Origin: Proteocatella sphenisci DSM 23131
Lineage (GTDB): Bacteria > Bacillota > Clostridia > Peptostreptococcales > Filifactoraceae
DNA: 64,000 nt
Assembly: GCF_000423525.1 (NCBI RefSeq)
Contig: NZ_AUID01000016.1
Span: 1-64,000, forward strand
Direction of reading: 5' to 3'
Below, piece by piece: positions 7,740-42,598 of the stretch (positions within the stretch are counted from its first letter, which is position 1; every line of letters starts with the position of its first letter). The notes under the pieces were generated by a model. It searched no databases. It was not told the DNA's origin and saw only the letters and a program-made list of their open reading frames with translations. The position numbers were made by a program, and so were the translations under genes.

Positions 7740-8702
7740 CTAATATTTTATGCCTTTCCAATAAATTGGAGAACTCACTTCTGCTTTTTCAGATAATACT
7801 ACATCTTTCAATGCCCACTTTTTATATTCTTCAAATCCAGTACGATCTATTATATATCCAATATGCTCTTTTCCTCCTGGAGCATCTTTTTCAATATATT
7901 CAGTTACATAGCCGTAAGTGTTTAATATTATTTTTGTAATGCTCTCTTCATCAGCCCACTTTATAAAATCTTCACCAAGTCTGGGATTCTTTTTACCGGT
8001 CCTTCCCATTAAAGTGAATCTGTAATATTTTTCCTCACTTCTTGTCCATGCTGAATTTGGACAACTAAGTATGCATTCTCCACATCCTATGCATTTTGAT
8101 TCATTTCGGCGAGGTCTGAAATTTACAGTCTCTAAGGCTTCTACTGATTTTTTCTTACATACTTTAACGCATGCACCGCAACTTACACACCTGTCAGCAT
8201 TAAACTGTGGCTCTGTCATACCCATTATACCAAAATCATGCATACGCACCTTTGCACAGTCATTAGGACATCCAGTAAGGGCAATTTTAAAATGCAGGTC
8301 ATTTGGGAAAATAACTTTTTCAATTCTTTGAGCAAAAGCCGACGTATCATAACAACCGTAAGGACATACTCTATTTCCTATACAAGCTGTTACATTCCTG
8401 GTTCCCGCTGCAGGGTATCCCGTGCCTTCTTCAATTTGATTTATATCAAGACCTTCAATCACAGGCTGCAACAACTCATTTACCCTGTCTATATCTTCAA
8501 ATTTTATCCCAGGTAACTCAAATCCCTGTCTGCTTGTGATATGAACCGTACCATTTCCATAAGTCTGAGCAATATTTTGAATTACTGAAAGAAACTCTGC
8601 ATTCAAATGTCCACCAGGGACTCTTATTCTTGATGCAGTTATTCCTCTTTGCTTGGTTATCCTAAATGCATTCTTTTTCAGTTTTTTAGTATTTATATCC
8701 AT
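7740..8702 (-). CDS. asrC: Anaerobic sulfite reductase subunit C
   Basis: AsrC is the catalytic sirohaem subunit that reduces sulfite to sulfide with six electrons. The N-terminal half is a nitrite/sulfite-reductase ferredoxin-like domain. The [4Fe-4S]-sirohaem ligands are in CIGNRVCPYGC and TGCPNDC. Two ferredoxin clusters follow (CVSCGACVKVC and CIGCGECILSC). Length is about 320 residues, as expected. The chosen ATG at 8702 lies 8 bases after AAAAGGA, which overlaps two earlier in-frame ATGs at 8711 and 8708. It is the last gene of the fnt-asrABC operon. Sirohaem is also the entry substrate of the haem pathway at 52-55 kb. Confidence 0.95.
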   Translation of the reverse strand: MDINTKKLKKNAFRITKQRGITASRIRVPGGHLNAEFLSVIQNIAQTYGNGTVHITSRQGFELPGIKFEDIDRVNELLQPVIEGLDINQIEEGTGYPAAGTRNVTACIGNRVCPYGCYDTSAFAQRIEKVIFPNDLHFKIALTGCPNDCAKVRMHDFGIMGMTEPQFNADRCVSCGACVKVCKKKSVEALETVNFRPRRNESKCIGCGECILSCPNSAWTRSEEKYYRFTLMGRTGKKNPRLGEDFIKWADEESITKIILNTYGYVTEYIEKDAPGGKEHIGYIIDRTGFEEYKKWALKDVVLSEKAEVSSPIYWKGIKY

Positions 8703-8717
8703 ATCCATCATCCTTTT

Positions 8718-9509
8718 CTAATCAATCAAAGTCTTTCCCTTTGTGTAATTGAATACGGGACCTTCAAGGCATACATAAACATCTCCAATTTTACAGTGTC
8801 CGCATTTCCCTAAGCCACAGCACATTTTTCTTTCCTGAGAAATCCATATATTTTCTTCTTTGAATCCATAATCAATCAAACCTTGCGCGGAAAATCTCAT
8901 CATTGCTGGCGGACCTACAACAATTGCATTGGCCGTTTCTAAATCTTTTATTTCAAGTTTTGGTATATATTGTGTTACCAGTCCCACCTGACAAGCGCTG
9001 TTGTCATCTGCACAATCCACAGTCAATATGACATTCATATTCTTTTTCCAGCTTCCAAAATCTTCCAGAAATAAAATATCATTTGGGGTTTTAAATCCTG
9101 CAATGAAAGTCATTCCATTTGTCTGATCTATATTTTTACTGAAATAATCTACCACACCTCTTACTGGGGACACACCTGTTCCTCCTGCTACTACAACAAG
9201 TTCTTTACCTTTATACAAGTTTACATCAAATCCATTACCATAAGGCCCTCTAATGAAAAAATGCTGCCCTTCATAAAGTTCAAATACTTCATTAGTAACT
9301 TTTCCTACTTTTCTTATCGTGAGATCTACTGTCCCATCACCTATTCCACTTACTGAAATCGGGGCTTCTCCATACTTTGGTATGGACACCTCAAAAAATT
9401 GTCCTGGCTTTACTTCTCCTTCGTATTTCATTCTAAAAGTATATTCTATATCTGTATGTTTTATTATCTCTATTATTTCAGAAGCGAAAGGCAAATAATT
9501 ATTTTCCAT
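8718..9509 (-). CDS. asrB: Anaerobic sulfite reductase subunit B
   Basis: The product has 263 residues and belongs to the ferredoxin-NADP reductase superfamily. The N-terminal barrel binds flavin (RGPYGNGF), the middle binds NAD(P)H (VVAGGTGVSPVRGV) and the C-terminal CCGLGKCGHC loop binds a [2Fe-2S] cluster, as in dihydroorotate dehydrogenase electron-transfer subunits. It passes electrons from NADH through AsrA to AsrC. The ATG at 9509 is chosen because AGGAGG (9519-9524) is 9 bases upstream; an in-frame GTG at 9515 is too close. It overlaps the asrA end by 11 bases. Confidence 0.95.
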   Translation of the reverse strand: MENNYLPFASEIIEIIKHTDIEYTFRMKYEGEVKPGQFFEVSIPKYGEAPISVSGIGDGTVDLTIRKVGKVTNEVFELYEGQHFFIRGPYGNGFDVNLYKGKELVVVAGGTGVSPVRGVVDYFSKNIDQTNGMTFIAGFKTPNDILFLEDFGSWKKNMNVILTVDCADDNSACQVGLVTQYIPKLEIKDLETANAIVVGPPAMMRFSAQGLIDYGFKEENIWISQERKMCCGLGKCGHCKIGDVYVCLEGPVFNYTKGKTLID

Positions 9510-26755: not shown

Positions 26756-28228
26756 TCAAAAATATATGATTCTATCACTTATATGTTTCAGCATTGGCAG
26801 GTCATGGGCAATTATCATCAGTGTAATCCCTCTTTCACTGTTCAATTTTTTAAAGAGATGAATTATCTGTGCTTGAATAGAAACATCCAGAGACGATATA
26901 GGCTCATCAGCAATAATAAAATCCGGATTGGTCGATATGGCCCTGGCTATTGCCGCTCTTTGTCTTTGTCCTCCAGAGATTTCATAAGGATAACGATCTA
27001 TCAAATTTCTTTCAAGCTCAACTTCATCCATAAGTTTTAACACAGTTTCTCTTTTTGGAAATTTACCATCTTTAATCCTTATGGGTTCTCCAATTATTTT
27101 TTCAAGTGTCATCCCCGGATTAAGAGATGAAAAAGAGTCCTGGAATATCATCTGTTTCCAGTTTGTGTTATCCTTGTTTTTTGTTGTATTAAAAGTTATA
27201 TTACCCTGGTCCGGGTTATAAATCCCCATAATACACCTTGCAAGAGTCGATTTGCCACATCCAGAGGGACCGACAACCCCAAGTATCTCTCCCTTGTAGA
27301 TATGCATATCTAAGTCTTTTAACACTGCATTGACTTTTTTCTGGCTCAGATTAAAAGACTTGCTCAGTTTTTTGACTTCTACAAGTTTCTCACTGTATTT
27401 CCTTAATTCTTGATTTAGTAGTCCATGGCTATGCCCACTTCGCTTTCCGTAATTTGCATATTTTATGAGCTCTTTAGTGTAATCATGTTCGGGATTAGCA
27501 AATACCTTTTCTGTTTTTCCAGACTCTAAAATATTTCCGTCTTTCATTATAATAACTCTGTCGGCTATATCTTCTACAATACTCAAATCATGTGTTATAA
27601 AAATTACGGCAATTCCATGTTTTTGTGAATAAGTTTTTATTAACTCCAGAATCTGTTCTTGAACCTCAATATCTAAAAAAGTGGTGGGTTCATCAGCTAA
27701 CAATAATTTTGGATTTGCAGCCAAAGCAATCGCTATTGCTATTCTTTGCCTCATTCCTCCAGAGAATTGGTGCGGCATCTGTTTGTATCTTAGCTCTACA
27801 TCACTCAGCCCCACTTCTTCCATCAATCTGTAAGTCTTCTCTATAGCTTGGCTCTTTGTCATTTTAAAATGAATTCTCATGACTTCAGATATTTGTTTTC
27901 CAACTGAAATTGAAGGATTTAAAGAAGTAAGAGGATTTTGAAATACCATCGATATGTCTCTTCCTCTAACGCTGCGCATTTCTTTTTCACCAAGCCCCAG
28001 CAGATTTACTCCATCCAAAATAATTTCACCACTTTTAACAATACCTTTTTTACATAAAATCTGAAGTATAGTCTTACAAAGCACAGTTTTTCCACATCCC
28101 GATTCTCCGACAAGTGCTAATATTTGACCTTTTTGCAGCTCTAGATTTACTTTATTAAGTGCTCTGACTTCTCCTTCCTCATTATTGAAAGAAACCGTAA
28201 TATCTTTTATAGACAATATGTTTTTCAT
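26756..28228 (-). CDS. Fused double ABC ATPase, oligopeptide/nickel type
   Basis: The product has 490 residues with two complete nucleotide-binding domains in one chain, joined by a linker at about 255-285. Each has Walker A (GESGCGKT; GPSGCGKS), signature (SGGMRQR; SGGQRQR), Walker B (LLLADEPT; FIIADEPIS) and an H loop (FITHDL; IIAHDL). This corresponds to DppD-DppF or NikD-NikE. The chain stops at SDRIIYF, about 20-40 residues shorter than usual, after all catalytic motifs. The ATG at 28228 is chosen because GAGGTGG lies upstream. It is the last gene of the four-gene transporter operon. Confidence 0.92.
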   Translation of the reverse strand: MKNILSIKDITVSFNNEEGEVRALNKVNLELQKGQILALVGESGCGKTVLCKTILQILCKKGIVKSGEIILDGVNLLGLGEKEMRSVRGRDISMVFQNPLTSLNPSISVGKQISEVMRIHFKMTKSQAIEKTYRLMEEVGLSDVELRYKQMPHQFSGGMRQRIAIAIALAANPKLLLADEPTTFLDIEVQEQILELIKTYSQKHGIAVIFITHDLSIVEDIADRVIIMKDGNILESGKTEKVFANPEHDYTKELIKYANYGKRSGHSHGLLNQELRKYSEKLVEVKKLSKSFNLSQKKVNAVLKDLDMHIYKGEILGVVGPSGCGKSTLARCIMGIYNPDQGNITFNTTKNKDNTNWKQMIFQDSFSSLNPGMTLEKIIGEPIRIKDGKFPKRETVLKLMDEVELERNLIDRYPYEISGGQRQRAAIARAISTNPDFIIADEPISSLDVSIQAQIIHLFKKLNSERGITLMIIAHDLPMLKHISDRIIYF

Positions 28229-28256
28229 AACTTCCACCTCAGATTAAATATTAAAT

Positions 28257-29822
28257 CTATACTTCCCATTCATAGACATTCCAAAAAATTCCTACTCCAT
28301 GGTGTCCAAGAGTCGTATTTTCTGTTATTCCTTTAATATTATCTTTTGCTGCGTAAATTGCGTCTATATATGCAATGAATGTGTAGGCAGGATTGTCAGA
28401 TAGTTCTTTCTGAAATTCCTTATACAATTTAATTCTTTCTTCATTAACATCTGTTTCTCTGGCTGATTGAAGAATTTCATCGATTTTTTTATTCGAATAG
28501 CTTCCATAATTTGCGCCTTTTGATGTAGCAAACACCTTGTAAGTATGGTCATCTGGATCAAAAGGGCTTCCCCATCCTATCAGGTATGTATCCTGATTTT
28601 CCCAGTCAGTTTCTGCAAGAACTTTAACGGTCGCATTTACTCCTATATTTTGAAGATACTGGGCGCAAATATTTGACATATCTATTCTCACCTGGTCCGC
28701 TTGTCCATTGTTTATCTCAAATTCCAGCTGCTCATCGTCTTTGTAAAAAAAACCATCTTCTTCCCTTATCCAGCCCTCATCTTCAAGCAACTTTACAGCC
28801 ATTTCAGGATTGTAATCATATTTTTCCATTTCTGTATTATTAAATTCTGTCTTTTGAAGAGGTGAATACGCAACTTCTCCATTGCCTAAAAGCACACTTT
28901 CTACTATAGCTTGCCTGTCAATCGCATAACTAAGTATTGAAGGAAGTTCTTTGTGTTTTGAAAAAAACTCGCTGTTGAAATTGTACATTATACCCCTATA
29001 GTCAGACGTCTCCATTTTATAAATCTGGTATCCGTCTTTTCCCTCAAACTCACTCATTGATTTTGGAGTAATCTGTGCAAAATCCAGCTCACCACTTTTT
29101 AGCTGCAGTGCTCTTGAGTCAGAATCTTCAACTATTTTGAATATTATTTTCTCAATCTTAGGAGCGCCTAAATAAAAATCGTCAAACTTTTCAAGCGTAA
29201 TGCTTTGTCCAAAATCCCAGTTTGTGAGCTTGTAAGGCCCTGCCCCAACGGGGTTTTGATTGAACTCATGTGTTACAATCTGTTCTCCTGCAAGTATATG
29301 TTCAGGCAAAATACCTATAGTAAGATAATCCAGCATAGCCACATTTGCAGCTTTGAGTTTTATAACAAAATTAAAATCATCAATTATATCTATGCTTTCT
29401 ACGTCTTCAAAATTTGATGCATTTTCTGAATTATTGTCTGGGTTCATTATAGATTCAATTGTAAATTTAACATCTTTTGAAGTAAGTGGTTCTCCATCAT
29501 GAAACAAGAGTCCTTCTCTTAATTTAAAGTGATATTCATGTTTATCTTTATCATAACTCCAGTTTTGTGCGGCTGATGGAATCACTTTATTGTCTGCATC
29601 ATGAGCTGTAAGTCCAATAAATATAAGTGAATTTATCTCACCGTGTTCATAAAGTGCAGGGTTTATTGACGTATAATCTGTACTCCCATAAACAAGAGTA
29701 TTTTGTTGCGATGACTCCTGTGCCCCACATGATGCCATTGTAAGAGACAGCACCGACAAAATAATTATAGCACTTATTCTTCTTGTATATTTTTTCAATT
29801 CCTCTTTTATTGATTTAAACAT
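28257..29822 (-). CDS. ABC substrate-binding lipoprotein, family 5
   Basis: The product has 521 residues. A lipoprotein signal ends in LTMASC, placing it on the outer face of the membrane. The family-5 (peptide/nickel) signature is in NWSYDKDKHEYHFKLREGLLFHDGEPLTSKDVKFT. Such proteins bind di- or oligopeptides, Ni2+ chelates or sugars. Nothing in the sequence decides the ligand. Gene order (permease, permease, binding protein, fused ATPase) and tight spacing (17-19 bases) mark one operon. Confidence 0.93.
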   Translation of the reverse strand: MFKSIKEELKKYTRRISAIIILSVLSLTMASCGAQESSQQNTLVYGSTDYTSINPALYEHGEINSLIFIGLTAHDADNKVIPSAAQNWSYDKDKHEYHFKLREGLLFHDGEPLTSKDVKFTIESIMNPDNNSENASNFEDVESIDIIDDFNFVIKLKAANVAMLDYLTIGILPEHILAGEQIVTHEFNQNPVGAGPYKLTNWDFGQSITLEKFDDFYLGAPKIEKIIFKIVEDSDSRALQLKSGELDFAQITPKSMSEFEGKDGYQIYKMETSDYRGIMYNFNSEFFSKHKELPSILSYAIDRQAIVESVLLGNGEVAYSPLQKTEFNNTEMEKYDYNPEMAVKLLEDEGWIREEDGFFYKDDEQLEFEINNGQADQVRIDMSNICAQYLQNIGVNATVKVLAETDWENQDTYLIGWGSPFDPDDHTYKVFATSKGANYGSYSNKKIDEILQSARETDVNEERIKLYKEFQKELSDNPAYTFIAYIDAIYAAKDNIKGITENTTLGHHGVGIFWNVYEWEV

Positions 29823-29839
29823 ATTTTTATCCCTTCCTA

Positions 29840-30652
29840 TTATAATAAAATCTCATTTTTCTTTCTTCCTTTTATAAATTCTCCTAATTCAGTTATGCAT
29901 ATAATTGTTACTATAAGAAAGAAACCTGGTATAAACAAAATCCACCAATTTCCTGAAAGCATGGCTTTTTGGGAGAGAGAAATAAGAGTCCCCCATGAAA
30001 CCACATCTACACTAAGTCCTATACCTAGAAAACTCAAAGTAGCTTCCATAGCAATAGCCCCTGCTATTTTACTTATTACTATAAACATAATTGCTGAAAT
30101 AAAATTTGGTCCCAAATGGTTCCAGAGAATATAAAAAAAACCGCCTCCCATTGTTTTTGCAGCAAGTACATAATCAGAGTTTTTTATCTGCCTAACCTCA
30201 CTTCTTACTATCTTTGCCACTTCCATCCAACCCGTTAATGCGATTACTATCGAGATTGAAATAATATTGGCCTCTCCAAAAATCGCCTGTATAAAAACAA
30301 CCATTAAAACCTGAGGTATACTCATAAATATGTCGGATAACCTCATTAGCATATCATCTGCTTTTTCATCTGCAAGCCCCGCTATGCACCCATATGTAAC
30401 GGCTATAAGGGTTGAAATGAGGGTCGAAAAAATTCCAATAAAAAGTGATATTCTTCCACCATACCAAATCATAGAAAATATATCTCTTCCAAGTGTATCC
30501 GTTCCAAAAAGGTGTTTTAATCCCGGGGGTGTGCTGATTTGCGAAAGATCCATAAAATGAGGATCGAGGGGAATAAAAACATCAGCAAAAATGCACCCCA
30601 AAACTATAACAAAAAGCACTACAATCGGAATAACTTGCACCTTCTTATTCAA
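29840..30652 (-). CDS. ABC permease, OppC/NikC type
   Basis: The product has about 270 residues and six membrane helices. N-terminal features fit OppC/NikC (FGTDTLGRDIFSMIWYGGRISL), and the EAA loop lies at KTMGGGFFYILWNHLGPN. The proposed start is the TTG at 30652, because GGAGGT (30660-30665) lies 7 bases before it; the upstream ATG at 30667 has no ribosome site. With this start it overlaps the preceding permease gene by 8 bases. Confidence 0.88.
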   Translation of the reverse strand: MNKKVQVIPIVVLFVIVLGCIFADVFIPLDPHFMDLSQISTPPGLKHLFGTDTLGRDIFSMIWYGGRISLFIGIFSTLISTLIAVTYGCIAGLADEKADDMLMRLSDIFMSIPQVLMVVFIQAIFGEANIISISIVIALTGWMEVAKIVRSEVRQIKNSDYVLAAKTMGGGFFYILWNHLGPNFISAIMFIVISKIAGAIAMEATLSFLGIGLSVDVVSWGTLISLSQKAMLSGNWWILFIPGFFLIVTIICITELGEFIKGRKKNEILL

Positions 30653-31637
30653 AGTGTTTACCTCCATCAATTTTATCGTGTTTCATTCTTGGATCCATCT
30701 TCTCATTTATTACCTGAGCAATCATGCTTGCGGATACAACTGTAAAACCCGTTATAAGGCAAATTACCATTAGCATATTATAATCTTGATACAGCGCACT
30801 TTCAAAGCCCAACATTCCTAATCCCGGGTAAGAGAATACCATCTCTACAACGTATGATCCCCCTATCAAATGGGGAAGAAAAACAGCCATAACACTGACA
30901 ACTGCAGGCATTATATTCTTCATGCAGTGAAAAAATATTATCCGAATTTGAGATAATCCCTTAACCTTACATAAAAGTACGTATTCCTTGCGAATCTCAT
31001 CAGATAATTTGCTTTTTATAAGATGTGTGCAGTACCAAAGATGGGTAATAACAACCGATGACACCGGCAATATCAGGTGCCTTAATCTATCTGAAAAACC
31101 TTCGCTTCCCATGTAAGAATATGCACCACTTGAAGGTAAAATCCCCGTGTTAACAGAAAAAAACATTATTAACATAAGAGCAACAAAAAACACAGGAATA
31201 CTGCTGCTTGCAATGCCCATCTTATTTATAAATCGATCTAAAATCGTACCTTCATTAATCACGCAAATTATAGCAAGCAAAAAAGCCAACGTAAATATAA
31301 CTATAAAACTAGAAACAGTCAGATAGAGCGTGTTTAGATAAACTTTAGCAATTACCGCTACAACATCTTGTTTGTACTTGTAAGATATACCAAAATTACC
31401 TTTTAATGCGTTTTTTAGCCATCTAAAATACTGGACTATGATATTATCATTGAGCCCCAAATTTATTCTTGCTGTGTTAAGCTGTTTTGGCGTCATTCTT
31501 TCCATAGAGTCTCCAAAATAAGATCTGAGCGGATCACCTGGAGACAATCGTGAAATCACAAAAATTACAGCCGATAGTATAAGCAGAGTTATTACTAATT
31601 GAAATGTTTTTTTGAAAACATATTTTAAATTGAGCAT
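30645..31637 (-). CDS. ABC permease, OppB/NikB type
   Basis: The product has 330 residues. The N-terminus has the typical OppB opening (FVISRLSPGDPLRSYFG) and the inner loop IRKEYVLLCKVKGLSQIRIIFFHCMKN is the EAA motif. About six helices follow the family layout, ending PRMKHDKID. It pairs with the OppC-type permease to form the membrane channel. It is the first gene of the operon, with a 351-base intergenic region upstream. Confidence 0.92.
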   Translation of the reverse strand: MLNLKYVFKKTFQLVITLLILSAVIFVISRLSPGDPLRSYFGDSMERMTPKQLNTARINLGLNDNIIVQYFRWLKNALKGNFGISYKYKQDVVAVIAKVYLNTLYLTVSSFIVIFTLAFLLAIICVINEGTILDRFINKMGIASSSIPVFFVALMLIMFFSVNTGILPSSGAYSYMGSEGFSDRLRHLILPVSSVVITHLWYCTHLIKSKLSDEIRKEYVLLCKVKGLSQIRIIFFHCMKNIMPAVVSVMAVFLPHLIGGSYVVEMVFSYPGLGMLGFESALYQDYNMLMVICLITGFTVVSASMIAQVINEKMDPRMKHDKIDGGKHFE

Positions 31638-31988: not shown

Positions 31989-32354
31989 ATGAAAATAGCT
32001 CTGCCATCACGTCAAAACAAAATAGATGACCACTTTGGTCATTGTGAATACTTTACTGTTTTTAAAATAAATGATAAAAAGGAAATTATTGGACAAGAAA
32101 CTGTTGAATCTCCTGCAGGTTGTGGATGCAAGTCAAATATAGCTACTACACTTGCTGATAGAGGAGTAACAGTAATGTTAGCCGGAAACATGGGACAAGG
32201 GGCCGTAAACGTCCTAAAGAACGCTGGAATAGAAGTTGTAAGAGGATGCTCAGGTGTTGTCGAAGAAGTTGCTTTAAATTGGCTAAGTGGGACCTTGTCA
32301 GACTCGGGCGATCCATGCAATTCACATGATCATGGTCATGAATGTAACCACTAA
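31989..32354 (+). CDS. NifX/NafY-family (FeMo-cofactor-type) protein with metal-binding tail
   Basis: The product has 121 residues. It follows the family core: MKIALPSRQNKIDDHFGHCEYFTVF, then CGCKSNIATTLADRGVTVMLAGNMGQGAVNVLKNAGIEVV. No other nif genes are present, so a nitrogenase role is unlikely; related proteins in anaerobes may carry iron-sulfur or molybdenum clusters. The last 18 residues are rich in His and Cys (CNSHDHGHECNH), a likely metal-binding tail. GGAGGAA precedes the ATG, and it has its own terminator. Confidence 0.9.
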   Translation: MKIALPSRQNKIDDHFGHCEYFTVFKINDKKEIIGQETVESPAGCGCKSNIATTLADRGVTVMLAGNMGQGAVNVLKNAGIEVVRGCSGVVEEVALNWLSGTLSDSGDPCNSHDHGHECNH

Positions 32355-32367
32355 AAATTTATTGTCT

Positions 32368-32412
32368 AAAATCACCCCGTATTTTTTTAAAAATATATAT
32401 GAGGTGATTTTT
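32368..32412. terminator. Terminator between NafY-like gene and diguanylate cyclase gene
   Basis: AAAATCACC and GGTGATTTT form a perfect stem with a long AT-rich loop, and T runs lie on both sides. It separates two converging genes. Confidence 0.75.
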
Positions 32413-32421
32413 GACCATCAT

Positions 32422-34542
32422 TTATTGTGATATTTCATATCCCCCTTTATTATTGTTCTTTGCTCTGTAAAGTGCACTGTCTGCCATGTGAATCATTTCA
32501 TCGTAATCCATCCCTTTACTTTCTAACCAGACTATTCCTCCTGATATCCCAATCTCACGTATATCTCCTCCTGGAAATTCAAGAGGACTTCTTTTTAAAT
32601 ATTCATAAAATCTGTCAATTTCTTTAATAATCTCATTCCTTGAGCTATATCCAAAAACTAAAACTGCAAACTCGTCTCCAGACCTCCTTCCCAAAACCAA
32701 ATTTTCTGAATTCCCAAGACTTCTTAATCTGTTAACCGACTCTACAATGTAAATATCTCCCCATTTATGACCATATGTGTCATTTATAAATTTCAGATTA
32801 TCCAAATCAAACATCATAAGTGCCGCAACCTCTAAATTTGCTTCTTGATATTTATGTTCAAAAATCTGCTGAAAAGCCCTCCTGTTATAAAGTTTAGTTA
32901 ATGGATCCAAATCTCTTTCGTTTTGAATTTGAATTTTTTCAAGCATTTCCTTTGTAACATCTCTTATAACTCCAGTGGTAGTATTATCATTTTTTGAAAT
33001 ATCAATTTTTATCCACTTTAATGGCCAGTCCTCTATTTTATAAATGCCCTTTTCATTTGGATCTTCAAAGCTGTATATTACATCAAGTATTTTTTGGAAA
33101 TCTCCCTTATTTATGTACTTGTAAGCATCTTCTTCTGCAATCCCCATTATAGAAAATAAATTATCAGTGACAAAAACTTCTTTACTGGTACTGCTAATTT
33201 CAAATGCTCCTATTGGAACATCTAACATCTGGATTATTCCACTCAGTCTGGATGCTGATTTTAACATGTCATCTTTAGCCAATTCCATAGCTTTTGCCAG
33301 CTCATCAACTTCTCTAAGACCTGTAGAATCCAAACTTATTTTTTTGTTTTTACCACTTATCCTTACCTTATCAGCCAACTTTATTATGGGTTTTGAAAAC
33401 TTAAAACTAAAATATATGCTGCCCAGTATTCCTGCAATAAGGGAAATCCCAAACGATAAGAGTATTATACTTTGTATTTTTTTTGCATGCTTGAAAATAT
33501 AATCTTCTCTCATAAGCCCTATCAGATACCAGGATTCAGATTCAAATGGTGTATTGTTTCGATAAAGTCCAATTTTTTTAACACTTGCATATATTTCTTT
33601 TTTCATATTGTGATCTTTTAGAATGTATATGCCCCTGTCATTATCTATGTTGTCAAGTTTCAGAGGAGATTCTAGATTCATTATACGCTTTTGAAATGCA
33701 CCAACTGAAATTACAGGCATAAGGTCATCTTTTTCGGATTTTTTGTATGCCAGCATATAACCAAGAGAGTCCTGGGGCTGTAAATCAGTTGCGGGTAAAA
33801 GCTGAACAAAATAATTTAATGTAATTTCAATACCTATCACTCCTCTTAGATTTTTATCTTTATCAAATATCGGCATGGAGTATGTTATTATATCTAAATC
33901 ATTTGGTGACAGCCTGAAAGGTTTGCTCCAGTAACCCAATAAATTCGAATCCTTTGTCAAATGATTCTTTGAATATGGTCTTATAAAGAAATCCCGGTTT
34001 GCTTCTGTAATTTCATAATTATATTTCCATGTCTGGTCAAGTGGAATCTTGAGATTTTCAGAAATATCAGATGGACCTATAATTGTGTATATGTCATCGT
34101 TACTGTAATTGTTACTCAGCGGGTCATAATCTCTGAAATATAGTGCCTGATATTTTTCCTGACTCAAATCATTTCCTAAAATCAAATATACTCCTGTGGC
34201 TCGAGTGCTCCTAAGCATATCTATCAGGGTATCAGACACATCAAAAAGTAATGATTCGTCAGACCCAAATTCATTTGAGAGCTTTTCAGAAATTTGCTCT
34301 GTAAATGGCTGAAGATTTGTCCAACTATTCTTCATTTCCCTCTCCAGGTAACTTTTTCGACTTATCACAGTTTCATCAAAACTCTTAAGTGCATTGTTTC
34401 TTGACTCTTTCAGCACTCCTCCAAGTACAAGGCTTGCACTGAAAAAAAATGTCTGCAATATAATTATCACTATAGCAAAAGTTGTCAGTTTGAAAACTAT
34501 GGATTTGGTTTTATTAGTAACTATATCATTTTTAGTATACAT
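32422..34542 (-). CDS. dCache-HAMP-GGDEF diguanylate cyclase
   Basis: The product has 706 residues. A first helix (about 18-40) leads into a large extracellular double-Cache sensor (40-350). A second helix (about 360-380), a HAMP-like linker, a PAS-like region (430-535) and a C-terminal GGDEF domain (545-706) follow. The active motif reads SGDEF rather than GGDEF, a variant often still active, and the RxxD inhibitory site is missing, so product inhibition may be weak. The gene lies 14 bases after a solute-binding lipoprotein gene with no permease, so the lipoprotein probably presents ligand to the Cache domain. Confidence 0.9.
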   Translation of the reverse strand: MYTKNDIVTNKTKSIVFKLTTFAIVIIILQTFFFSASLVLGGVLKESRNNALKSFDETVISRKSYLEREMKNSWTNLQPFTEQISEKLSNEFGSDESLLFDVSDTLIDMLRSTRATGVYLILGNDLSQEKYQALYFRDYDPLSNNYSNDDIYTIIGPSDISENLKIPLDQTWKYNYEITEANRDFFIRPYSKNHLTKDSNLLGYWSKPFRLSPNDLDIITYSMPIFDKDKNLRGVIGIEITLNYFVQLLPATDLQPQDSLGYMLAYKKSEKDDLMPVISVGAFQKRIMNLESPLKLDNIDNDRGIYILKDHNMKKEIYASVKKIGLYRNNTPFESESWYLIGLMREDYIFKHAKKIQSIILLSFGISLIAGILGSIYFSFKFSKPIIKLADKVRISGKNKKISLDSTGLREVDELAKAMELAKDDMLKSASRLSGIIQMLDVPIGAFEISSTSKEVFVTDNLFSIMGIAEEDAYKYINKGDFQKILDVIYSFEDPNEKGIYKIEDWPLKWIKIDISKNDNTTTGVIRDVTKEMLEKIQIQNERDLDPLTKLYNRRAFQQIFEHKYQEANLEVAALMMFDLDNLKFINDTYGHKWGDIYIVESVNRLRSLGNSENLVLGRRSGDEFAVLVFGYSSRNEIIKEIDRFYEYLKRSPLEFPGGDIREIGISGGIVWLESKGMDYDEMIHMADSALYRAKNNNKGGYEISQ

Positions 34543-34556
34543 ATATAAGCCTCTCG

Positions 34557-35999
34557 TTATTTATATCTGATCAGTATCGCCTCTGCTTCACTCACTATAT
34601 CTTTATACCATTTTTCAAACTCAACTTCACTAATATGGTCATTAATTAAATCTTTGTAAATTTTCCCCGCTGATACTTGTTTACTTATAATCTCTACATC
34701 TCTTGTGATTTTTTCGTTAAGCTCTGATTCAAGAAAATTTCTAATTTCAAAACTTCCATCAAAAGGTTTTGTGCTATAAATGCTATACTCATTAAACATT
34801 TTATTAGTAGTTAATATTGAAGCCTTTATGGCCGGGTTTGTTATTTTTGCTTCTTGCATTGCACCTATCATTTTAGATTCATTTAAAATTTCGTTTTTTA
34901 CTGGAAAATACCCAGTTGAGACTGCAAATTTAAGATTATTTTCAGCTGTTGTGAACCATTTCAAAAATTCTGCAGACGCATATTCATGTTGAAAATCACT
35001 TTTTGAAATACACATACCCGCACCTTGCTGCATTGCAAAAGGTTTACCATCTCTAAAATAAGGATAGGGAAGTACAAGCGCTTCTATCTCAACAATGTCA
35101 TCTTGACTAAATGTTACTTCAGTAGGAAAATATCCTGCTCCTGCAGTAGAACCTGTATATGCAATAGTCTTACCCGTTTTCGCATCGTCCGAGCTAAACC
35201 TGCCAGTTTTTAAAAAATAGCCATTTAAGTATGGTGTATAGTAGTTATCCCAAATTTTTCTGGCAATATCTTTATCAAAATTAAAGCTTGCAGTGCCGTC
35301 TTCATTGTAAGAAAAAATCTCTGTTCCAAGCTGCATAGAAGACATAAGAATATAATTTGTTACTGCATCAATGCCCAAAAAACTATTTCCTGTCTCTTCG
35401 TAATATTTCTCCGCAACCCTTAAAATACTCTCCCATGTACTTAAATCAGCTTCAGTATATCCATGTTTTTTTGAAAAAGTTTCCCAATACTTTTTATTAA
35501 CAAATAGATTTTCGCTGGACTTGGCAACAGGTATTATATAATGCTTTTCTTCATTTAAAAAAACTCCCTCTTTCAGAAATTCTTTTCTATATTCTTGAAT
35601 CTCTTCGTCCGTAAAATATGATTCCATATCTACAAGACCAATTATTTTATGTACACGTATTGCATTGTCCGGATAAGCAGCAAAAATATTGGGCATATTT
35701 TCAGAGCCAATATCATTACTCGCAGCATCAAACACAGCATTGGCAAGCTGACCTACATCCCCATGACTTTTTGTTTCAACTACAATACCCATTTCCATAC
35801 CAGTAGTTTCATTAAACTCTGATACCATCGCATCAAAATTGTCTTTTATATGACCATTATAATAATGCCATATCGTAACTGTAATTGGGTTGTCTTGATT
35901 CAGAGGGTTTATATTCCCGCTTATACTCTGGCACCCATTTAAAGCTATTATAACAACTAACATAAGAACCATTATACTTTTTTTAAAACAATTTTCCAT
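34557..35999 (-). CDS. Solute-binding lipoprotein, family 1, paired with a cyclase
   Basis: The product has 480 residues. A lipobox (IIALNGC) near residue 23 anchors it outside the membrane. The fold follows family-1 sugar-type binding proteins (ITVTIWHYYNGHIKDNFDAMVSEFNETTG, then YTGSTAGAGYFP and a C-terminal AAEFLKWF-like segment, here SAEFLKWFTTAENN). No permease or ATPase gene is adjacent. Its only operon partner is the dCache diguanylate cyclase, which suggests sensing rather than transport. A promoter lies at 36064-36092. Confidence 0.9.
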   Translation of the reverse strand: MENCFKKSIMVLMLVVIIALNGCQSISGNINPLNQDNPITVTIWHYYNGHIKDNFDAMVSEFNETTGMEMGIVVETKSHGDVGQLANAVFDAASNDIGSENMPNIFAAYPDNAIRVHKIIGLVDMESYFTDEEIQEYRKEFLKEGVFLNEEKHYIIPVAKSSENLFVNKKYWETFSKKHGYTEADLSTWESILRVAEKYYEETGNSFLGIDAVTNYILMSSMQLGTEIFSYNEDGTASFNFDKDIARKIWDNYYTPYLNGYFLKTGRFSSDDAKTGKTIAYTGSTAGAGYFPTEVTFSQDDIVEIEALVLPYPYFRDGKPFAMQQGAGMCISKSDFQHEYASAEFLKWFTTAENNLKFAVSTGYFPVKNEILNESKMIGAMQEAKITNPAIKASILTTNKMFNEYSIYSTKPFDGSFEIRNFLESELNEKITRDVEIISKQVSAGKIYKDLINDHISEVEFEKWYKDIVSEAEAILIRYK

Positions 36000-36063: not shown

Positions 36064-36092
36064 ACTATAATGTATCGTTAGTAATTTTTCAA
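36064..36092 (-). promoter_or_regulatory. Promoter of the binding-protein/cyclase operon
   Basis: On the minus strand TTGAAA (36092-36087) and TATAGT (36069-36064) are 17 bases apart, about 65 bases before the start codon. A second AT-rich TATAAT occurs nearer the gene, so the exact start is uncertain. Confidence 0.55.
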
Positions 36093-36097: not shown

Positions 36098-36946
36098 TTA
36101 AAATCTACCAGATGGCTTGAATTTTAGCTCATTTGTTATTTCTTCCTGACGTTTTTTTCTATATGAATACTTTAATTCTGAAAGTTTTTCATCTATATTT
36201 TTTTTAGCAGCACTCATGGAAGCTATCCTGCTGTTATTTTCCGATATCAGAGAAAAACAGATACTTCTGTACAGTGTCAGAAAATAATACTGACGTACTA
36301 TATCCGAAACAAGAGTCCCCTTGTCCATTAAATATATAGGGACACTGTTAGAGTCCCATTTAAATGATATTTTTGAAAAATCCTGAGGGTTTATTGGAAA
36401 GAGAGTTTCTATTACTTCAGTCATATTTGAAGAATCTGTTGTCTTGCAATAGTAGAGTAAAATTTTATTTATGACACTGGTGTCCTTCAAATGATCTATT
36501 TTCGTAAGTAATCTTTGCACCACTTCTGAGATGGAATCTTCAGATTGAGGAACTGAAAAATATTCAATAATATTAAATTTCGCCTCAAGCCTGGATATAA
36601 GTTGCTTGCCGATTATCATGACATAGTCTTCATTGTCTATATCAATATTATTAATAGCAAACTCAGCAATCCTTTCATTAAACCGCCCCGCAAGTCCAAA
36701 ATCAGAACCAAATACAATGTGTATTGTTCTTCCCTCAGAAATTTCTTGTATGCTTATGTTTTCATCATCCTTGAGAAGTGCAATATAAAGGGCCATATCA
36801 ATTACTTCACGGTAAATATCTGATGCATCTGATGCATGCTCAAACTCGAAAATATTCGCAGAAGCATGTGCCTTCATTGTTGTAACAACAGATTTCAAAT
36901 TTTCTGTCAATCGTATTTTATCATCTATGTTTTTTAGACTTTGCAT
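36098..36946 (-). CDS. atpG: N-type F-ATPase gamma subunit
   Basis: The product has 282 residues. The N-terminal helix (KNIDDKIRLTENLKSVVTTMKAHASANI) and the C-terminal helix (NNSRIASMSAAKKNIDEKLSELKYSYRKKRQEEITNEL) are the coiled-coil rotor segments of gamma. The middle domain is diverged, as usual in the N-ATPase branch. Gamma transmits rotation between the membrane ring and the catalytic head. It overlaps atpA by 26 bases and is the last gene of the operon; I see no clear terminator after it. Confidence 0.88.
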   Translation of the reverse strand: MQSLKNIDDKIRLTENLKSVVTTMKAHASANIFEFEHASDASDIYREVIDMALYIALLKDDENISIQEISEGRTIHIVFGSDFGLAGRFNERIAEFAINNIDIDNEDYVMIIGKQLISRLEAKFNIIEYFSVPQSEDSISEVVQRLLTKIDHLKDTSVINKILLYYCKTTDSSNMTEVIETLFPINPQDFSKISFKWDSNSVPIYLMDKGTLVSDIVRQYYFLTLYRSICFSLISENNSRIASMSAAKKNIDEKLSELKYSYRKKRQEEITNELKFKPSGRF

Positions 36947-38459
36947 CCTTGTTAACCAACTCCTTTGTAATTTCTAAAGCTGTTTCTTTAAGAAAGTCAT
37001 CCCTTATTCTATCATCAATTTTATTCAGCTCGCTTATACTTAGTTGAAACTCCAAGTTTTTTGATGCTGTTTTTATCGCAATTTTCTCAGCCTGACCAAT
37101 CATTTCAATATCAACATCATCAAAAAGTCCACTGAGCACCGCTATCAAGACTGCAATTTGGTCTGTTACGTCTATAGGCTTATATTGGGCTTGATTTAAA
37201 ACCTTTCTAATCCTTTTTCCCCTTTCTAGAATTATTTTGGTTTTTTCATCGAGTCTGGCACTAAATGTTGAAAATACTTCTAGCTCACTAAACTGTGAAT
37301 AGGTTAATTTTAATGAAGTAGTAATCTGGCGGTAGGCAGGTATCTGAGTCTTCCCCCCAACTCTTGATACTGATGTCCCAATATCAACAGCTGGAATATT
37401 CCCTTTTTGAAAAATCTTTGGAGATAAGTAAATCTGTCCATCAGTTATAGAAATAAGATTCGTAGGAATATAAGAAGACAGGTTTTCCGCCTGTGTTTCA
37501 ATTATAGGGAGTGCAGTAATGCTTCCACCACCATATTCTGGTTTTAGATGGGTGGATCTTTCAAGAAGCCTGGAATGTATATAAAATATATCTCCCGGAT
37601 AGGATTCTCTTCCAGATGGTCTCTCAAGTAATAATGATAGTTCTCTGTATGCCCTTGCGTGTTTTGTCAGATCATCATAGATTATGAGTACATCGTGCCC
37701 GTTTTCCATAAAAAATTCTGCAATTGTTGTTGCGGCATATGGTGCAATATATGCAAGCCCTGGTGGATCTTCAGCTCCGGCCATAACAACAATAGTGTAG
37801 GATAAAGCATCGTATGTTTTCAACACATCTATAATCTTGCTGACTGAAGAAATTTGCTGGGCAATTGAACAGTATATGCAGATTACATTCTTATCTTTTT
37901 GATTAATTATAGTATCAATGGCAATGGCTGTTTTCCCGGTTTGACGATCGCCAAGTATGAGTTCTCGCTGCCCTTTTCCTACTGGAACTATTGAATCAAT
38001 AACTTTTATACCCGTTTGGAGAGGTTTATTAATGGGAGCTCTGTGCATAATAGGTGGAGCCTCTCTTTCTACCGGCATAATTATTCCGGTATCGATTGGA
38101 CCTTTTTCATCAAGTACCTTTCCTAATGGATTAATAACTCTTCCCAGGTAATCTTCCGAAACAGGTATACTGGCCACCTTATATGTTCTTTTTACTCTAT
38201 CTCCTGCTCTTATATTTTCATAATTACCCAGGAGAATTATTCCGGTACGATCTGAATTAAGATTATAAACCATTCCAAGTATGCCATTTGAAAACTCCAC
38301 CAATTCCTGATATTTAACTTTATATAAACCTTTCACTATTACAATACCCCTGTCAAGTGACAAAACTATCCCATATTCTTCCAGATCAAGGTCCCCCAGA
38401 GGCTTTAAAAGTGCATCTTTGACTGATTCTTCTAATATAGATAGTTGTTTTTTAATCAT
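36921..38459 (-). CDS. atpA: N-type F-ATPase alpha subunit
   Basis: The product has 512 residues from the ATG at 38459, preceded by AGGAGC; a TTG at 38465 is an unlikely alternative. Walker A reads GDRQTGKT (about 170-177), and later alpha-type blocks are present (VCIYCSIAQQ replaced by NVICIYCSIAQQISSV, and GGSITALPIIETQAENLSSYIPTN). Alpha subunits hold the non-catalytic nucleotide sites of the hexamer. The neighbours b and gamma follow the atpDCQRBEFAG order. Confidence 0.95.
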   Translation of the reverse strand: MIKKQLSILEESVKDALLKPLGDLDLEEYGIVLSLDRGIVIVKGLYKVKYQELVEFSNGILGMVYNLNSDRTGIILLGNYENIRAGDRVKRTYKVASIPVSEDYLGRVINPLGKVLDEKGPIDTGIIMPVEREAPPIMHRAPINKPLQTGIKVIDSIVPVGKGQRELILGDRQTGKTAIAIDTIINQKDKNVICIYCSIAQQISSVSKIIDVLKTYDALSYTIVVMAGAEDPPGLAYIAPYAATTIAEFFMENGHDVLIIYDDLTKHARAYRELSLLLERPSGRESYPGDIFYIHSRLLERSTHLKPEYGGGSITALPIIETQAENLSSYIPTNLISITDGQIYLSPKIFQKGNIPAVDIGTSVSRVGGKTQIPAYRQITTSLKLTYSQFSELEVFSTFSARLDEKTKIILERGKRIRKVLNQAQYKPIDVTDQIAVLIAVLSGLFDDVDIEMIGQAEKIAIKTASKNLEFQLSISELNKIDDRIRDDFLKETALEITKELVNKDAKSKKHR

Positions 38460-38474
38460 TATCAAGCAGCTCCT

Positions 38475-39239
38475 TTATTTTTTAGATTCAATGATTCTCA
38501 TAAGATTGTCTTGAGCTTCCTCAAGATATCTATCAATGTTTGTGTGTAAACTAAACGATGAAAATCTGAGTTCATATCCAAGTATCATTCTTTTATCGGT
38601 GATATAAGAAATTTTGTAATCAGCATTAAACTGTCTTTTTAGCTCTGCTTCAATCATTGTTTTGTTTTCATCCGAAATCTCATAAGCGCTCCTTATGACA
38701 ACATTTTCATCAAAGCCCGGGCTTTTTTCCTGCTGATATTTTTCATTCAAATCATTTTTAAGTGAAGCTAATTTCCCCATAAATACATTAAACATGTTAT
38801 CGTGTACGCTGTCATAATTAAATATTTTCAAAATATTTTCCGCAATCTTAACTGAATTTTCACCTAGTGATTTTCTGATTTCAAATTCAAATTCACTTTT
38901 TTCATCTTCGATTCGGTCATAATAGATTTCCCTCAATTCTTCAGCTTGAGCCTTAAATCCTTCCATCAACTTTTCTTTTTCCTCGACTGCATTTTTCTTA
39001 GCTATATCCATGAGCTCATTTTCAGTTTCCCCGATTTCTCTAAGCTTGTTTTCATACAAACTTATTATACTGCTCGCCTCTTCCATCTTCTTATCAGCTT
39101 TGCTAAGTTCCTCATTTATCTTTTCTTGTCTCTCTTTCATTGTCTTTAAAACAGGTTTATATAAAAGTTTTGAAAGAATAAATAAAAGTACAAGAAAATT
39201 GATAATCTGAGCAATTATCTCAAATATATTTATCTGCAT
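38475..39239 (-). CDS. atpF: N-type F-ATPase b subunit with delta-like C-terminus
   Basis: The product has 254 residues, about 90 longer than a normal b subunit. Residues 1-30 form the membrane anchor, and 35-165 form a long charged helix typical of b. Residues 175-254 (NVVIRSAYEISDENKTMIEAELKRQF... KRMILGYELRFSSFSLHTNIDRYLEE) resemble the C-terminal half of the delta subunit. The operon has no separate atpH, so this tail probably replaces delta in linking stator and head. That matches the known N-ATPase layout. Confidence 0.85.
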   Translation of the reverse strand: MQINIFEIIAQIINFLVLLFILSKLLYKPVLKTMKERQEKINEELSKADKKMEEASSIISLYENKLREIGETENELMDIAKKNAVEEKEKLMEGFKAQAEELREIYYDRIEDEKSEFEFEIRKSLGENSVKIAENILKIFNYDSVHDNMFNVFMGKLASLKNDLNEKYQQEKSPGFDENVVIRSAYEISDENKTMIEAELKRQFNADYKISYITDKRMILGYELRFSSFSLHTNIDRYLEEAQDNLMRIIESKK

Positions 39240-39242
39240 ACG

Positions 39243-39509
39243 TTATTTCACCAACGCATTCCAAAATGGATTTGCAAACAAAAGAATCATAGAGAGGACA
39301 AAGCAGTATATTGCAGTTGACTCTATCATCGCGAGGCCGACAAAAAGAGTTCTCGATATTGTATTTGATTCATCAGGTTGTTGAGCAATGGATTTTAATG
39401 CCTGAGTCACCGCATTTGATTCTCCTATAGCCGGTGCTATAGAGCCTATGCACAGAGTAACTCCTGCCATAATAATTGAAGTCATACCTATCATTGTTGC
39501 TGATTCCAT
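39243..39509 (-). CDS. atpE: N-type F-ATPase c subunit, sodium-binding residues
   Basis: The product has 88 residues and two helices. The C-terminal helix carries IESTAIY with E63, S64, T65 and Y68, the Na+-ligand set known from Ilyobacter tartaricus (E65, S66, T67, Y70). The N-terminal helix has E30 where that protein has Q32, giving two carboxylates per protomer as in other N-ATPases. The residues point to Na+ binding, but double-carboxylate rings can also carry protons. A loop with QQPDESN joins the helices. Confidence 0.92.
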   Translation of the reverse strand: MESATMIGMTSIIMAGVTLCIGSIAPAIGESNAVTQALKSIAQQPDESNTISRTLFVGLAMIESTAIYCFVLSMILLFANPFWNALVK

Positions 39510-39521
39510 ATTGTTCCTCCT

Positions 39522-40184
39522 TCATTGTTTAATTGCTGAAGCAATGTACACTGCAGCAAGTATGGCAAATATATAGGCCTGAATTGCGCCTGTAAGTAAA
39601 CCTAACACCTGAATTATAATAGGGAAAAATAAGGGAATAACCCCTAGCAGTATAGCGATTATTATACTCGAACTCATTACATTACCATAAAGCCTTACTG
39701 CCAATGATATGGTTCTTGATATTTCACCTATTATGTTAAATGGCAGCATCAATATTGAAGGTTTTGTATACTGCCTTAGATAGTTTAAAAATCCTCTGCT
39801 TGAAATCCCATATAAAGGCACTGCCAAAAATACGCACAATGCCAAAGCTATCGTTGTGTTCATAGAACCTGCAGGCGATATATATCCAGGAATTACAGAT
39901 AAAATATTCGAAATCAGTATAAAAATAAAAAGAGTTCCTATAAATGGGATATATTTCTCTGAATCTTTTCTGATGATATCCTTGATCTGGCTTGATATGG
40001 CTACCACTATCAGCTCTGCTAAATTCTGATTCATCATAATCTTGTTTTCTGTTTTTAATTTTCTTGTTATAAAAAATGCAAAAACAGCAATTATTATCAT
40101 TGTAATCCAGGAAAAAACCAGCGTAGCCGTTATCCTTACAAATCCGTTTTCAAAATAGATAATGCTGCTGGGATCAATACTCAT
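39522..40184 (-). CDS. atpB: N-type F-ATPase a subunit
   Basis: The product has 220 residues and five to six membrane helices. The essential arginine lies in ISLAVRLYGNVMSSS (R164), followed by a helix with GAIQAYIFAILAAVYIASAI, the usual final helix. It forms the ion half-channels next to the c ring. Its ATG overlaps the atpR stop codon (ATGA). Confidence 0.93.
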   Translation of the reverse strand: MSIDPSSIIYFENGFVRITATLVFSWITMIIIAVFAFFITRKLKTENKIMMNQNLAELIVVAISSQIKDIIRKDSEKYIPFIGTLFIFILISNILSVIPGYISPAGSMNTTIALALCVFLAVPLYGISSRGFLNYLRQYTKPSILMLPFNIIGEISRTISLAVRLYGNVMSSSIIIAILLGVIPLFFPIIIQVLGLLTGAIQAYIFAILAAVYIASAIKQ

Positions 40185-40474
40185 GACTTTTCCTCCTCAA
40201 CTAATTTTTCATCATCAGACATAAGGCTGTTTCTAACAAAGTACGTTATTGCAATTCTGGCTGTAATCACTCCAATAAGCGCTATTACCATACTCATATA
40301 ACCACTGTTTCTCAACTGATAAAAACCCGCCAAAAGAACCGCCATTCTTAAAACAAAGCTCATCGTCACAAATAGTACCGGATTTTTTACTTTTGTAATA
40401 TATTTTATAGTATAATTTAACCCCCCAAAGAAGATTATTCCTAAAACCATACCTGTTAAAAAAGATGTAAGCAT
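40181..40474 (-). CDS. atpR: N-ATPase accessory membrane protein AtpR
   Basis: The product has 97 residues with three predicted helices. It starts MLTSFLTGMVLGIIFFGGLNYTI, and an arginine lies in the second hydrophobic segment (FVLRMAVLLAGFY). AtpR is specific to N-ATPase operons and is thought to help assemble the c ring or interact with its carboxylates. Position between atpQ and atpB and the overlap with atpB support the call. Confidence 0.82.
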   Translation of the reverse strand: MLTSFLTGMVLGIIFFGGLNYTIKYITKVKNPVLFVTMSFVLRMAVLLAGFYQLRNSGYMSMVIALIGVITARIAITYFVRNSLMSDDEKLVEEEKS

Positions 40475-40492
40475 GCTATGCCCCCCTTTTAC

Positions 40493-40786
40493 CTACTGCG
40501 GTCCGTTTTTCTTAATCCAGTACCACGCATTTAGACAACCAATAATTAAGCCCGTAAATAACAAAACCAGGGTCCACGAAAAACTCTGTGTATATTTTTC
40601 ATCTAGATATCTGCCTGATAATATTCCTGCGACCACCGGCACAGTTATAGACCATCCTACAATTCCAAAAGCTCCAAGTCCAAACATTACTTCGCTTCCA
40701 CTTTTCTGCATCTTTATTTTCGTTTTTACTTCTTGGTCAACTTTATCAATTAATTCATTTTCATGATCTGACTTCTTATCTTTCAT
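40493..40786 (-). CDS. atpQ: N-ATPase accessory membrane protein AtpQ (AtpI-like)
   Basis: The product has 97 residues from the ATG at 40786, which follows AGGAAGG; a TTG at 40804 is less likely. A charged N-terminus (about 35 residues) precedes two helices with FGLGAFGIVGWSITVPVVAGILSGRYLDEKY, a pattern shared with AtpI-type assembly factors. In N-ATPase operons this gene is named atpQ. Confidence 0.8.
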   Translation of the reverse strand: MKDKKSDHENELIDKVDQEVKTKIKMQKSGSEVMFGLGAFGIVGWSITVPVVAGILSGRYLDEKYTQSFSWTLVLLFTGLIIGCLNAWYWIKKNGPQ

Positions 40787-40800
40787 GGCTTTCCTTCCTG

Positions 40801-42598
<1,798 letters not shown>

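What the first reader, a model, noticed from the sequence alone, without database searches (positions are those of the whole stretch)
32422..35999. Solute-binding lipoprotein dedicated to a diguanylate cyclase
The binding protein has no permease or ATPase partner. It is 14 bases from a dCache-GGDEF gene with which it shares a promoter. The likely job is sensing an extracellular ligand and setting cyclic-di-GMP, rather than uptake.
Basis: inference. Interest (0 to 1): 0.5.

Follow-up and report, generated by a model that had tools for sequence, protein, structure and literature searches.

The report
Binding-lipoprotein switch controlling a diguanylate cyclase
A nutrient-binding lipoprotein of the kind that usually feeds an importer is here paired with a membrane sensor predicted to make a bacterial signalling molecule, and the same two-gene sensor recurs in many Clostridia-type bacteria with different inner switches attached.

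Summary
An SBP_bac_8 lipoprotein gene (34557-35999, minus) is followed after 14 nt by a dCache-like/GGDEF gene (32422-34542, minus); the shared promoter is likely, not shown. The only transporter beside it is an oligopeptide type with its own binding protein; of 25 PF00528 permease matches in the genome all but one have, by eye or coordinates, a candidate binding protein nearby. The pair is conserved: of 95 loci of this SBP family in three searches, 92 could be judged and 91 are followed by a same-strand dCache protein. Of 13 related SBP loci set apart, 12 could be judged and none has one. The cytoplasmic output varies: GGDEF, GGDEF-EAL, histidine kinase, or LuxR-type HTH. Presence and trees of the two genes agree; paralogues in 2 of 4 genomes agree clearly. 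Best reading: a dedicated extracellular co-receptor in which the lipoprotein, by its binding state, acts on the dCache domain and sets output. It works like NspS-MbaA but with a CUT1-like instead of PotD-like binding protein. Contact, ligand and polarity are not shown; the AlphaFold models were useless. My ten literature searches found no description. New variant of a known kind.

The parts
34557..35999 (-). Solute-binding lipoprotein (480 aa, SBP_bac_8 / CUT1-like), signal peptide with lipobox, Cys23
32422..34542 (-). Membrane sensor diguanylate cyclase (706 aa): TM1, extracellular dCache-like domain, TM2, linker with a PAS-like stretch, GGDEF domain
   Evidence: PAS-like stretch (aa about 440-530) judged by eye, no Pfam match
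33481..34407 (-). Extracellular dCache-like sensor region, aa about 46-354, the proposed docking site
   Evidence: MCP-like_PDC_1 aa 162-243, dCache_1 aa 48-263; flanking hydrophobic segments
32446..32910 (-). GGDEF domain, aa 545-699; active-site motif is SGDEF (aa 621-625) and no RxxD inhibitory site
34543..34556 (-). 14-nt gap with an AGAGG ribosome-binding-like site (34550-34554)
   Evidence: read directly
36064..36092 (-). Promoter-like match (TTGAAA-17-TATAGT) upstream of the lipoprotein gene; such matches are expected by chance
32353..32426 (.). Inverted repeat (36-nt arms, 75% complementary) between the convergent ends of the DGC gene and the next gene, possible two-way terminator; overlaps the last codons of the DGC gene

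Best explanation
The two genes encode one sensory device. The lipoprotein is anchored on the outer face of the membrane and binds a small extracellular solute; its binding state decides whether it docks on the extracellular dCache domain of the cyclase; docking moves the second transmembrane helix and, through the linker and PAS-like region, changes the activity of the GGDEF domain and so the level of c-di-GMP. Shown by sequence: the lipoprotein, the sensor architecture, the tight gene pair, its near-obligate conservation, agreement of the two trees, no CUT1-type permease nearby. Inferred: co-transcription, contact, ligand control, cyclase activity. Unknown: the ligand (the SBP family suggests a sugar, polyol or similar solute, weakly) and whether the loaded or the empty form activates.
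For: Next-gene tally: 91 of 92 judgeable family SBPs (95 in all, 3 cut by a contig end) are followed by a same-strand dCache protein; median gap 17 nt over the 89 measured, 76 of them at most 60 nt. The dCache model was built on the order's partners, so the 58 judgeable class and phylum loci are the independent part: 56 ring with it, one more (L155) with a later model, one (L157) does not. Of the 34 order loci 32 partners are also found by plain BLAST with the window's dCache part (the window itself and the 31 relatives shown). Reverse search in 198 genomes of the order: 36 dCache matches at E <= 1e-20; 34 lie beside a family SBP, one is cut by its contig end, one has none seen. Presence by genome: both in 34, dCache alone in 1 (the cut one), SBP alone in 0, neither in 163 (cut-offs SBP E < 1e-50, dCache E <= 1e-20). 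Distances in the SBP and dCache trees agree (88 pairs, Spearman 0.93; 0 of 500 permutations reach it, also 0 of 500 when partners are swapped only within an output type, maximum 0.81). In genomes with two pairs, own partners fit far better than swapped ones in 2 of 4 (0.92-0.95 against -0.50 to -0.61), modestly better in 1 (0.94 and 0.88 against 0.80 and 0.76), no difference in 1. The output changes while the SBP-dCache input stays: of the 91, 20 GGDEF, 21 GGDEF-EAL, 4 kinase, 43 LuxR-type HTH (42 intact, 1 in a gene split in two), 3 too truncated to tell. No match to a CUT1-type permease model in 777 picked ORFs of the 95 loci, while the same model rings in 11 of 13 ordinary-SBP loci. Independent check: in 72,556 plasmid-collection records the SBP and dCache queries hit the same 2 records, side by side. 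Precedent: NspS-MbaA, whose cyclase motif is also SGDEF and is required for the response (PMC8079147, passages).
Against: No physical contact, ligand or c-di-GMP effect is shown. One SBP counted in the family (L157) has no dCache next to it, and its genome gave no dCache match, in a one-genome search whose tool note says an empty answer alone shows nothing. One dCache-GGDEF-EAL (L266) has no SBP seen in the 567 bases upstream before the contig ends. If the 13 set-apart SBP loci are counted in, the tally is 91 of 104 judgeable. The line between the two was drawn after seeing scores; they lie close (344 against 335 bits), and the tree does not settle it: 8 of the 13 lie outside, but 5 of the 13 and L157 join the LuxR-type branch and the branch of all other types at one unresolved fork. 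The trees are FastTree ones, and agreement of trees is also expected of any two genes inherited together. 28 weaker, partial dCache matches were not examined. The structure models (mean pLDDT 37 and 37) gave nothing.
Confidence: 0.85

Rival explanations
1. The lipoprotein is an uptake protein for an ABC permease encoded elsewhere, and the cyclase merely shares its operon.
For: SBPs can serve distant or shared permeases (PMC9602780 notes SBP genes that are not near transporter genes, passages); the sequence family is that of CUT1 transporters; a related set-apart SBP sits beside a permease pair (L195) and another beside a transport-type ATPase (L185; label by eye).
Against: In this genome one permease pair lies in a maltose-type setting (C3, with LacI- and MalQ-like genes by eye) and it has its own SBP; the other PF00528 matches have a candidate SBP gene nearby, except a tungstate-type one (C9) whose SBP is unclear. 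No CUT1-type permease match near any of the 95 family loci. SBP and dCache stay together while outputs change. Not excluded: sharing the C3 permeases, or a permease of a family I did not search.
Confidence: 0.07
2. The dCache domain itself binds the ligand; the lipoprotein only captures and hands over the solute, or competes for it.
For: Some dCache domains bind ligands directly, for example an amino-acid-specific subfamily (stated in PMC9602780, passages).
Against: Does not by itself explain near-obligate pairing. By eye the RxWY-type amino-acid signature of dCache (recalled) is missing from the alignment; not a formal test.
Confidence: 0.06
3. Chance neighbours or a hitch-hiking cluster with no functional link.
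For: One genome alone could not exclude it.
Against: 91 of 92 judgeable loci; different outer neighbours (an ATP synthase-like operon upstream in the window, a kinase-like gene by eye in L007) around the same two-gene core.
Confidence: 0.02

Closest known systems
NspS-MbaA (Vibrio cholerae, Sinorhizobium meliloti)
   Same: SBP gene directly upstream of a two-TM GGDEF protein, genes overlapping and co-transcribed or predicted to be; periplasmic detection rather than import controls the response; SGDEF motif (PMC8079147 and PMC9993111, passages).
   Different: NspS is a PotD-like polyamine binder in a Gram-negative periplasm; here the SBP is a CUT1-like lipoprotein with no significant match to this genome's own PotD-type protein; MbaA has GGDEF-EAL, the window protein GGDEF alone, though 21 relatives have GGDEF-EAL.
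ArtI-STM1987 (Salmonella)
   Same: dCache_1 diguanylate cyclase that needs a binding protein to respond to L-arginine (PMC8846402, passages).
   Different: ArtI belongs to a transport system and is, as far as I recall, not encoded next to STM1987; here the SBP is adjacent and without a visible transporter.
SBP-activated sensor kinases (AgtS, AruS and others)
   Same: SBP gene next to the receptor gene (PMC11113362, start of abstract in search listings).
   Different: Histidine kinases; only 4 of the 91 receptors here carry a kinase.
CUT1 ABC transporter binding proteins (UgpB and sugar binders)
   Same: Same sequence superfamily, best solved relatives 7bvt, 6r1b, 4mfi, 7c0o.
   Different: No permease partner seen; conserved with a dCache receptor instead.

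Membership tests
NspS-MbaA | SBP gene immediately upstream of, and co-oriented with, a membrane GGDEF receptor | tested here: met
NspS-MbaA | SBP is a PotD-like polyamine-binding protein | tested here: not met
   No significant match to this genome's own PotD-type protein (best E 3.4); best solved relatives are UgpB/sugar binders. NspS itself was not compared.
NspS-MbaA | Receptor carries GGDEF-EAL | tested here: not met
   Window protein: GGDEF only. 21 of 91 family receptors do have it.
NspS-MbaA | SBP state controls c-di-GMP independent of transport | not testable with these tools
   needs experiment
CUT1 ABC transporter SBP | Sequence family SBP_bac_8 | tested here: met
   PF13416 88 bits, cut-off 27
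CUT1 ABC transporter SBP | Permease pair encoded with it | tested here: not met
dCache_1 sensor domain | Pfam dCache_1 above its cut-off between two TM helices | tested here: inconclusive
   dCache_1 27.7 bits (cut-off 45); MCP-like_PDC_1 35.5 (cut-off 27); two hydrophobic segments
Diguanylate cyclase (GGDEF) | GGDEF domain with catalytic motif | tested here: met
   PF00990 105.9 bits; motif is SGDEF, as in 38 of 42 family GGDEF proteins; activity not tested
Diguanylate cyclase (GGDEF) | RxxD inhibitory site | tested here: not met
   0 of 42 family GGDEF proteins; many active cyclases also lack it (recalled), so it is not a strict requirement

The most novel reading that the evidence does not exclude
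A portable extracellular sensing module, one lipoprotein plus one dCache membrane domain, has been inherited as a unit across Clostridia-type bacteria and coupled to at least four outputs (c-di-GMP synthesis, synthesis/breakdown, histidine kinase, and a membrane-tethered LuxR-type transcription factor). The LuxR branch would be a binding-protein-gated transcription factor with no kinase in between, a design I do not know to be described (one full-text search on it, showed no such report in its listing).
Probability: 0.6. Interest if true: 0.72.

Novelty: new variant of a known kind. Interest (0 to 1): 0.58.

Why it matters
Binding proteins are thought to stimulate receptors widely while also serving transport, so the two roles are hard to separate. 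Here is a large family in which the binding protein has a receptor partner and no visible transporter, in Gram-positive-type bacteria that include a named strain, Acetoanaerobium noterae DSL2. It offers a clean system for asking how a binding protein switches a dCache domain, what these bacteria sense with it, and how one input is re-wired to different outputs.

Tried and rejected
Hence no docking model and no pocket analysis.

Chance or window-only curiosity: rejected by the tally. Distant permease: looked for in the genome (PF00528 only) and near all family loci, not found, not fully excluded.

Ligand by gene context: by eye no metabolic gene recurs beside the pair, but the neighbour lists show lengths and few labels, so this is weak. 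The unnamed genus g40 (seven loci, L066-L072, with the same neighbour lengths) could not be named; I do not claim it is any particular organism. One paper on C. difficile c-di-GMP proteins that I looked for by DOI is not held, so a mention there cannot be excluded.

Literature: full-text searches showed no description of this pair; only listings and some passages were seen, and the library lacks most subscription papers. One hit (PMC2879425, passages) names an SBP and two GGDEF genes in Clostridium perfringens, but in different loci, so it is not this pair as far as the passages show.

Choices that affect counts: the family cut was set after seeing scores and is not settled by the tree; all 13 set-apart rows are reported. 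Six damaged or cut rows (L131, L220, L155, L125, L168, L169) were left out of both trees; L157 was left out of the dCache tree because it has none. L131 is counted as paired although its SBP gene is broken. L007 and L023 are taken to be the same contig (same length and gene order) and counted once. In some searches at most four candidates per genome were scored, so second copies may be missed.

Full report
What is there. On the minus strand a 480-aa lipoprotein gene (34557-35999) is followed after 14 nt by a 706-aa gene (32422-34542). The first product has a signal peptide with lipobox and matches SBP_bac_8; the second has two hydrophobic segments around a dCache-like domain and ends in a GGDEF domain. 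GGDEF matches are common here: the genome has 26, so the domain alone is not remarkable; the pairing is.

No transport partner nearby. The closest transporter (26756-31637) is an oligopeptide type with its own SBP_bac_5 protein. The genome (2.41 Mb, 45 contigs, 98.7% complete) has 6 SBP_bac_8 matches and 25 PF00528 permease matches. I looked at the surroundings of these permeases; the neighbours were named by eye from the starts of their translations, or, for C34, from coordinates alone. Four of the other five SBP_bac_8 proteins (C3, C6, C13, C34) sit by permeases; the fifth (C23) has no signal peptide by eye and lies in a cluster with methylthioribose-type genes, with a sugar-type permease of another family some 7 kb away. 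The remaining permeases have a candidate binding protein nearby, except a tungstate-type one (C9), where a LysM-bearing protein follows and the binding protein is unclear. One permease pair lies in a maltose-type setting (C3) and has its own SBP. Permeases outside PF00528 were not searched for.

The pair elsewhere. With the lipoprotein as query, 34 of 198 genomes of the order have a match at E < 1e-50, the own genome included; the next match is at 9e-19. With a 30-row profile, 48 of 391 genomes of the class and 26 of 398 of the phylum match at E <= 1e-60 (the three samples overlap). After removing repeats there are 108 loci. I set 13 of them apart as a related group and call the other 95 the family. 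The line follows score (339 bits or more against 335 or less; the 339 is the longer piece of a broken SBP, the lowest whole one has 344) and was drawn after seeing the neighbours. In a FastTree tree of 102 of the rows, 8 of the 13 form one branch, the other 5 (L185-L188, L195) form another, and L157, that 5-row branch, the LuxR-type branch and the branch of all other types meet at one unresolved fork. So the family is not shown to be one clade.

Of the 95, three end at a contig edge; of the 92 left, 91 are followed on the same strand by a dCache protein (90 by reading frame, L155 by a three-frame profile match in a cut stretch, E 1.7e-26) and one (L157) is not. In L131 the SBP gene itself is broken, its second piece being followed by the dCache gene. 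Of the 13 set-apart loci 12 can be judged and none has a dCache neighbour; three-frame searches of up to 2.5 kb downstream found none either. Over all 104 judgeable loci it is 91. As a further control I fetched 13 of the 37 weaker matches, ordinary SBPs: 11 of the 13 loci show CUT1-type permeases beside the SBP; 12 have a readable next gene and none of these is a clear family dCache; one (L087) gives a weak match (E 6e-6, 5e-8, 19-21 bits). A lipobox-like pattern is present in 90 of the 95; two of the five misses have cut starts (L135, L150), and L154 has a plain hydrophobic anchor.

How independent the dCache calls are. The first dCache model was built on the partners in the order. It rings in 56 of the 58 judgeable class and phylum loci, which were not used to build it. 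In the order 32 of 34 partners, the window included, are also seen by plain BLAST with the first 400 residues of the window's cyclase.

The reverse search with a 20-row dCache profile in the same 198 genomes gave 36 matches at E <= 1e-20: 34 beside a family SBP, one cut by its contig end (L265), one with no SBP seen in the 567 bases left upstream (L266). By genome: both in 34, dCache alone in 1, neither in 163. 28 weaker, partial matches (E 6e-15 to 8e-11) were not examined. Four members of the window's own family lack a family SBP (G002, G006, G009 without a match, G003 with a weak one at 5e-4) and also gave no dCache match.

Outputs. Among the 91: GGDEF alone 20, GGDEF-EAL 21, histidine kinase 4 (L073, L131, L134, L210; Pfam shows HisKA, HATPase and receiver in the three scanned, and GGDEF in L073 and L131), LuxR-type HTH 43 (42 intact; in L220 the gene is split in two), and 3 too truncated to tell (L076, L079, L155) (outputs of most rows come from profiles that I built from a few of these proteins). 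On the SBP tree the LuxR type is one branch (42 rows, support 98), and all output types together need few changes. Distances in the SBP and dCache trees agree (88 pairs, Spearman 0.93). Of four genomes with two pairs, in two the own partner fits and the swapped one does not, in one the difference is small, in one there is none. So the conserved thing is the input, SBP + dCache.

A check outside the genome set: among 72,556 plasmid-collection records tblastn finds the SBP (E <= 1e-20) and the dCache part (E <= 1e-5) in the same two records, Acetoanaerobium noterae DSL2 (a 2.63 Mb record) and Subdoligranulum variabile, side by side, with GGDEF and GGDEF-EAL receptors. The A. noterae locus has the gene order of L024, whose genome is in the window's family, so the window's genome is probably a relative of Acetoanaerobium (inference).

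Catalysis. The motif is SGDEF in 38 of 42 family GGDEF proteins, with GGDEF 2, AGDEF 1, SGDEI 1, and no RxxD site in any. Of 7 other GGDEF proteins in the same loci, none of the 5 with a readable motif has SGDEF and one has RxxD (a small control). [quoted passage not shown] I take the window protein as probably active; untested.

Mechanism. The best reading is that the lipoprotein is the ligand-binding half of the receptor and the dCache domain the docking half. Shown: gene anatomy, near-obligate pairing, tree agreement, change of outputs, no match to a CUT1-type permease model in the 777 ORFs picked from the 95 family loci (2.8 to 14 kb each). That model was built from one permease pair; it rings in the ordinary-SBP loci and in L195. 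Inferred: docking, signal through TM2, effect on c-di-GMP. Unknown: ligand and sign. An origin from a transport SBP is suggested by L195 with its permease pair.

Known or new. The principle is known: SBP-stimulated receptors including cyclases are stated in PMC9602780 (passages) and PMC8846402 (passages), and NspS-MbaA is the closest match in design (PMC9993111, passages). It fails two membership tests of NspS-MbaA: the SBP is not PotD-like by the indirect test I ran, and the window receptor lacks EAL. My ten full-text searches found no account of this family. Verdict: new variant of a known kind, of good interest because of its breadth and its exchangeable outputs.

Noticed in passing
window 36098-42565 (minus): ATP synthase-like operon directly upstream of the pair: gamma, alpha, a 254-aa b subunit with a delta-like end, and a beta-like subunit with a V/A-type C-terminal match by Pfam; c and a subunits by eye. 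The order resembles the N-ATPase operons of the literature (recalled).
   Followed up: partly
L010 (G000:C3) 3287-8293: A 591-aa GGDEF protein gene (6518-8293) lies directly upstream of a maltose-type SBP gene and its permease pair: a second SBP-cyclase neighbourhood, of a different kind.
   Followed up: no
L209 (G000:C23) 8286-9419: An SBP_bac_8-like protein without visible signal peptide inside a cluster that by eye looks like a microcompartment with methylthioribose kinase-type genes.
   Followed up: no
L024 and L267 (8566-10806 in L267): In Acetoanaerobium the pair is followed after 39 nt by a third gene, a 746-aa GGDEF-EAL protein.
   Followed up: no
L131 and L220: Broken members: the SBP gene is interrupted in L131, the dCache-LuxR gene is in two frames in L220 (seen in the shorter L175).
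   Followed up: no
L163, L192, L197: Related SBPs without a receptor recur beside a sodium/solute-symporter-like gene (about 500 aa); label by eye.
   Followed up: no
MT835604.1 and 8 other records: Nine records of the phage collection hold SBP relatives, at 35-38% identity in the five listed (human faecal samples); perhaps bacterial DNA in phage records.
   Followed up: no
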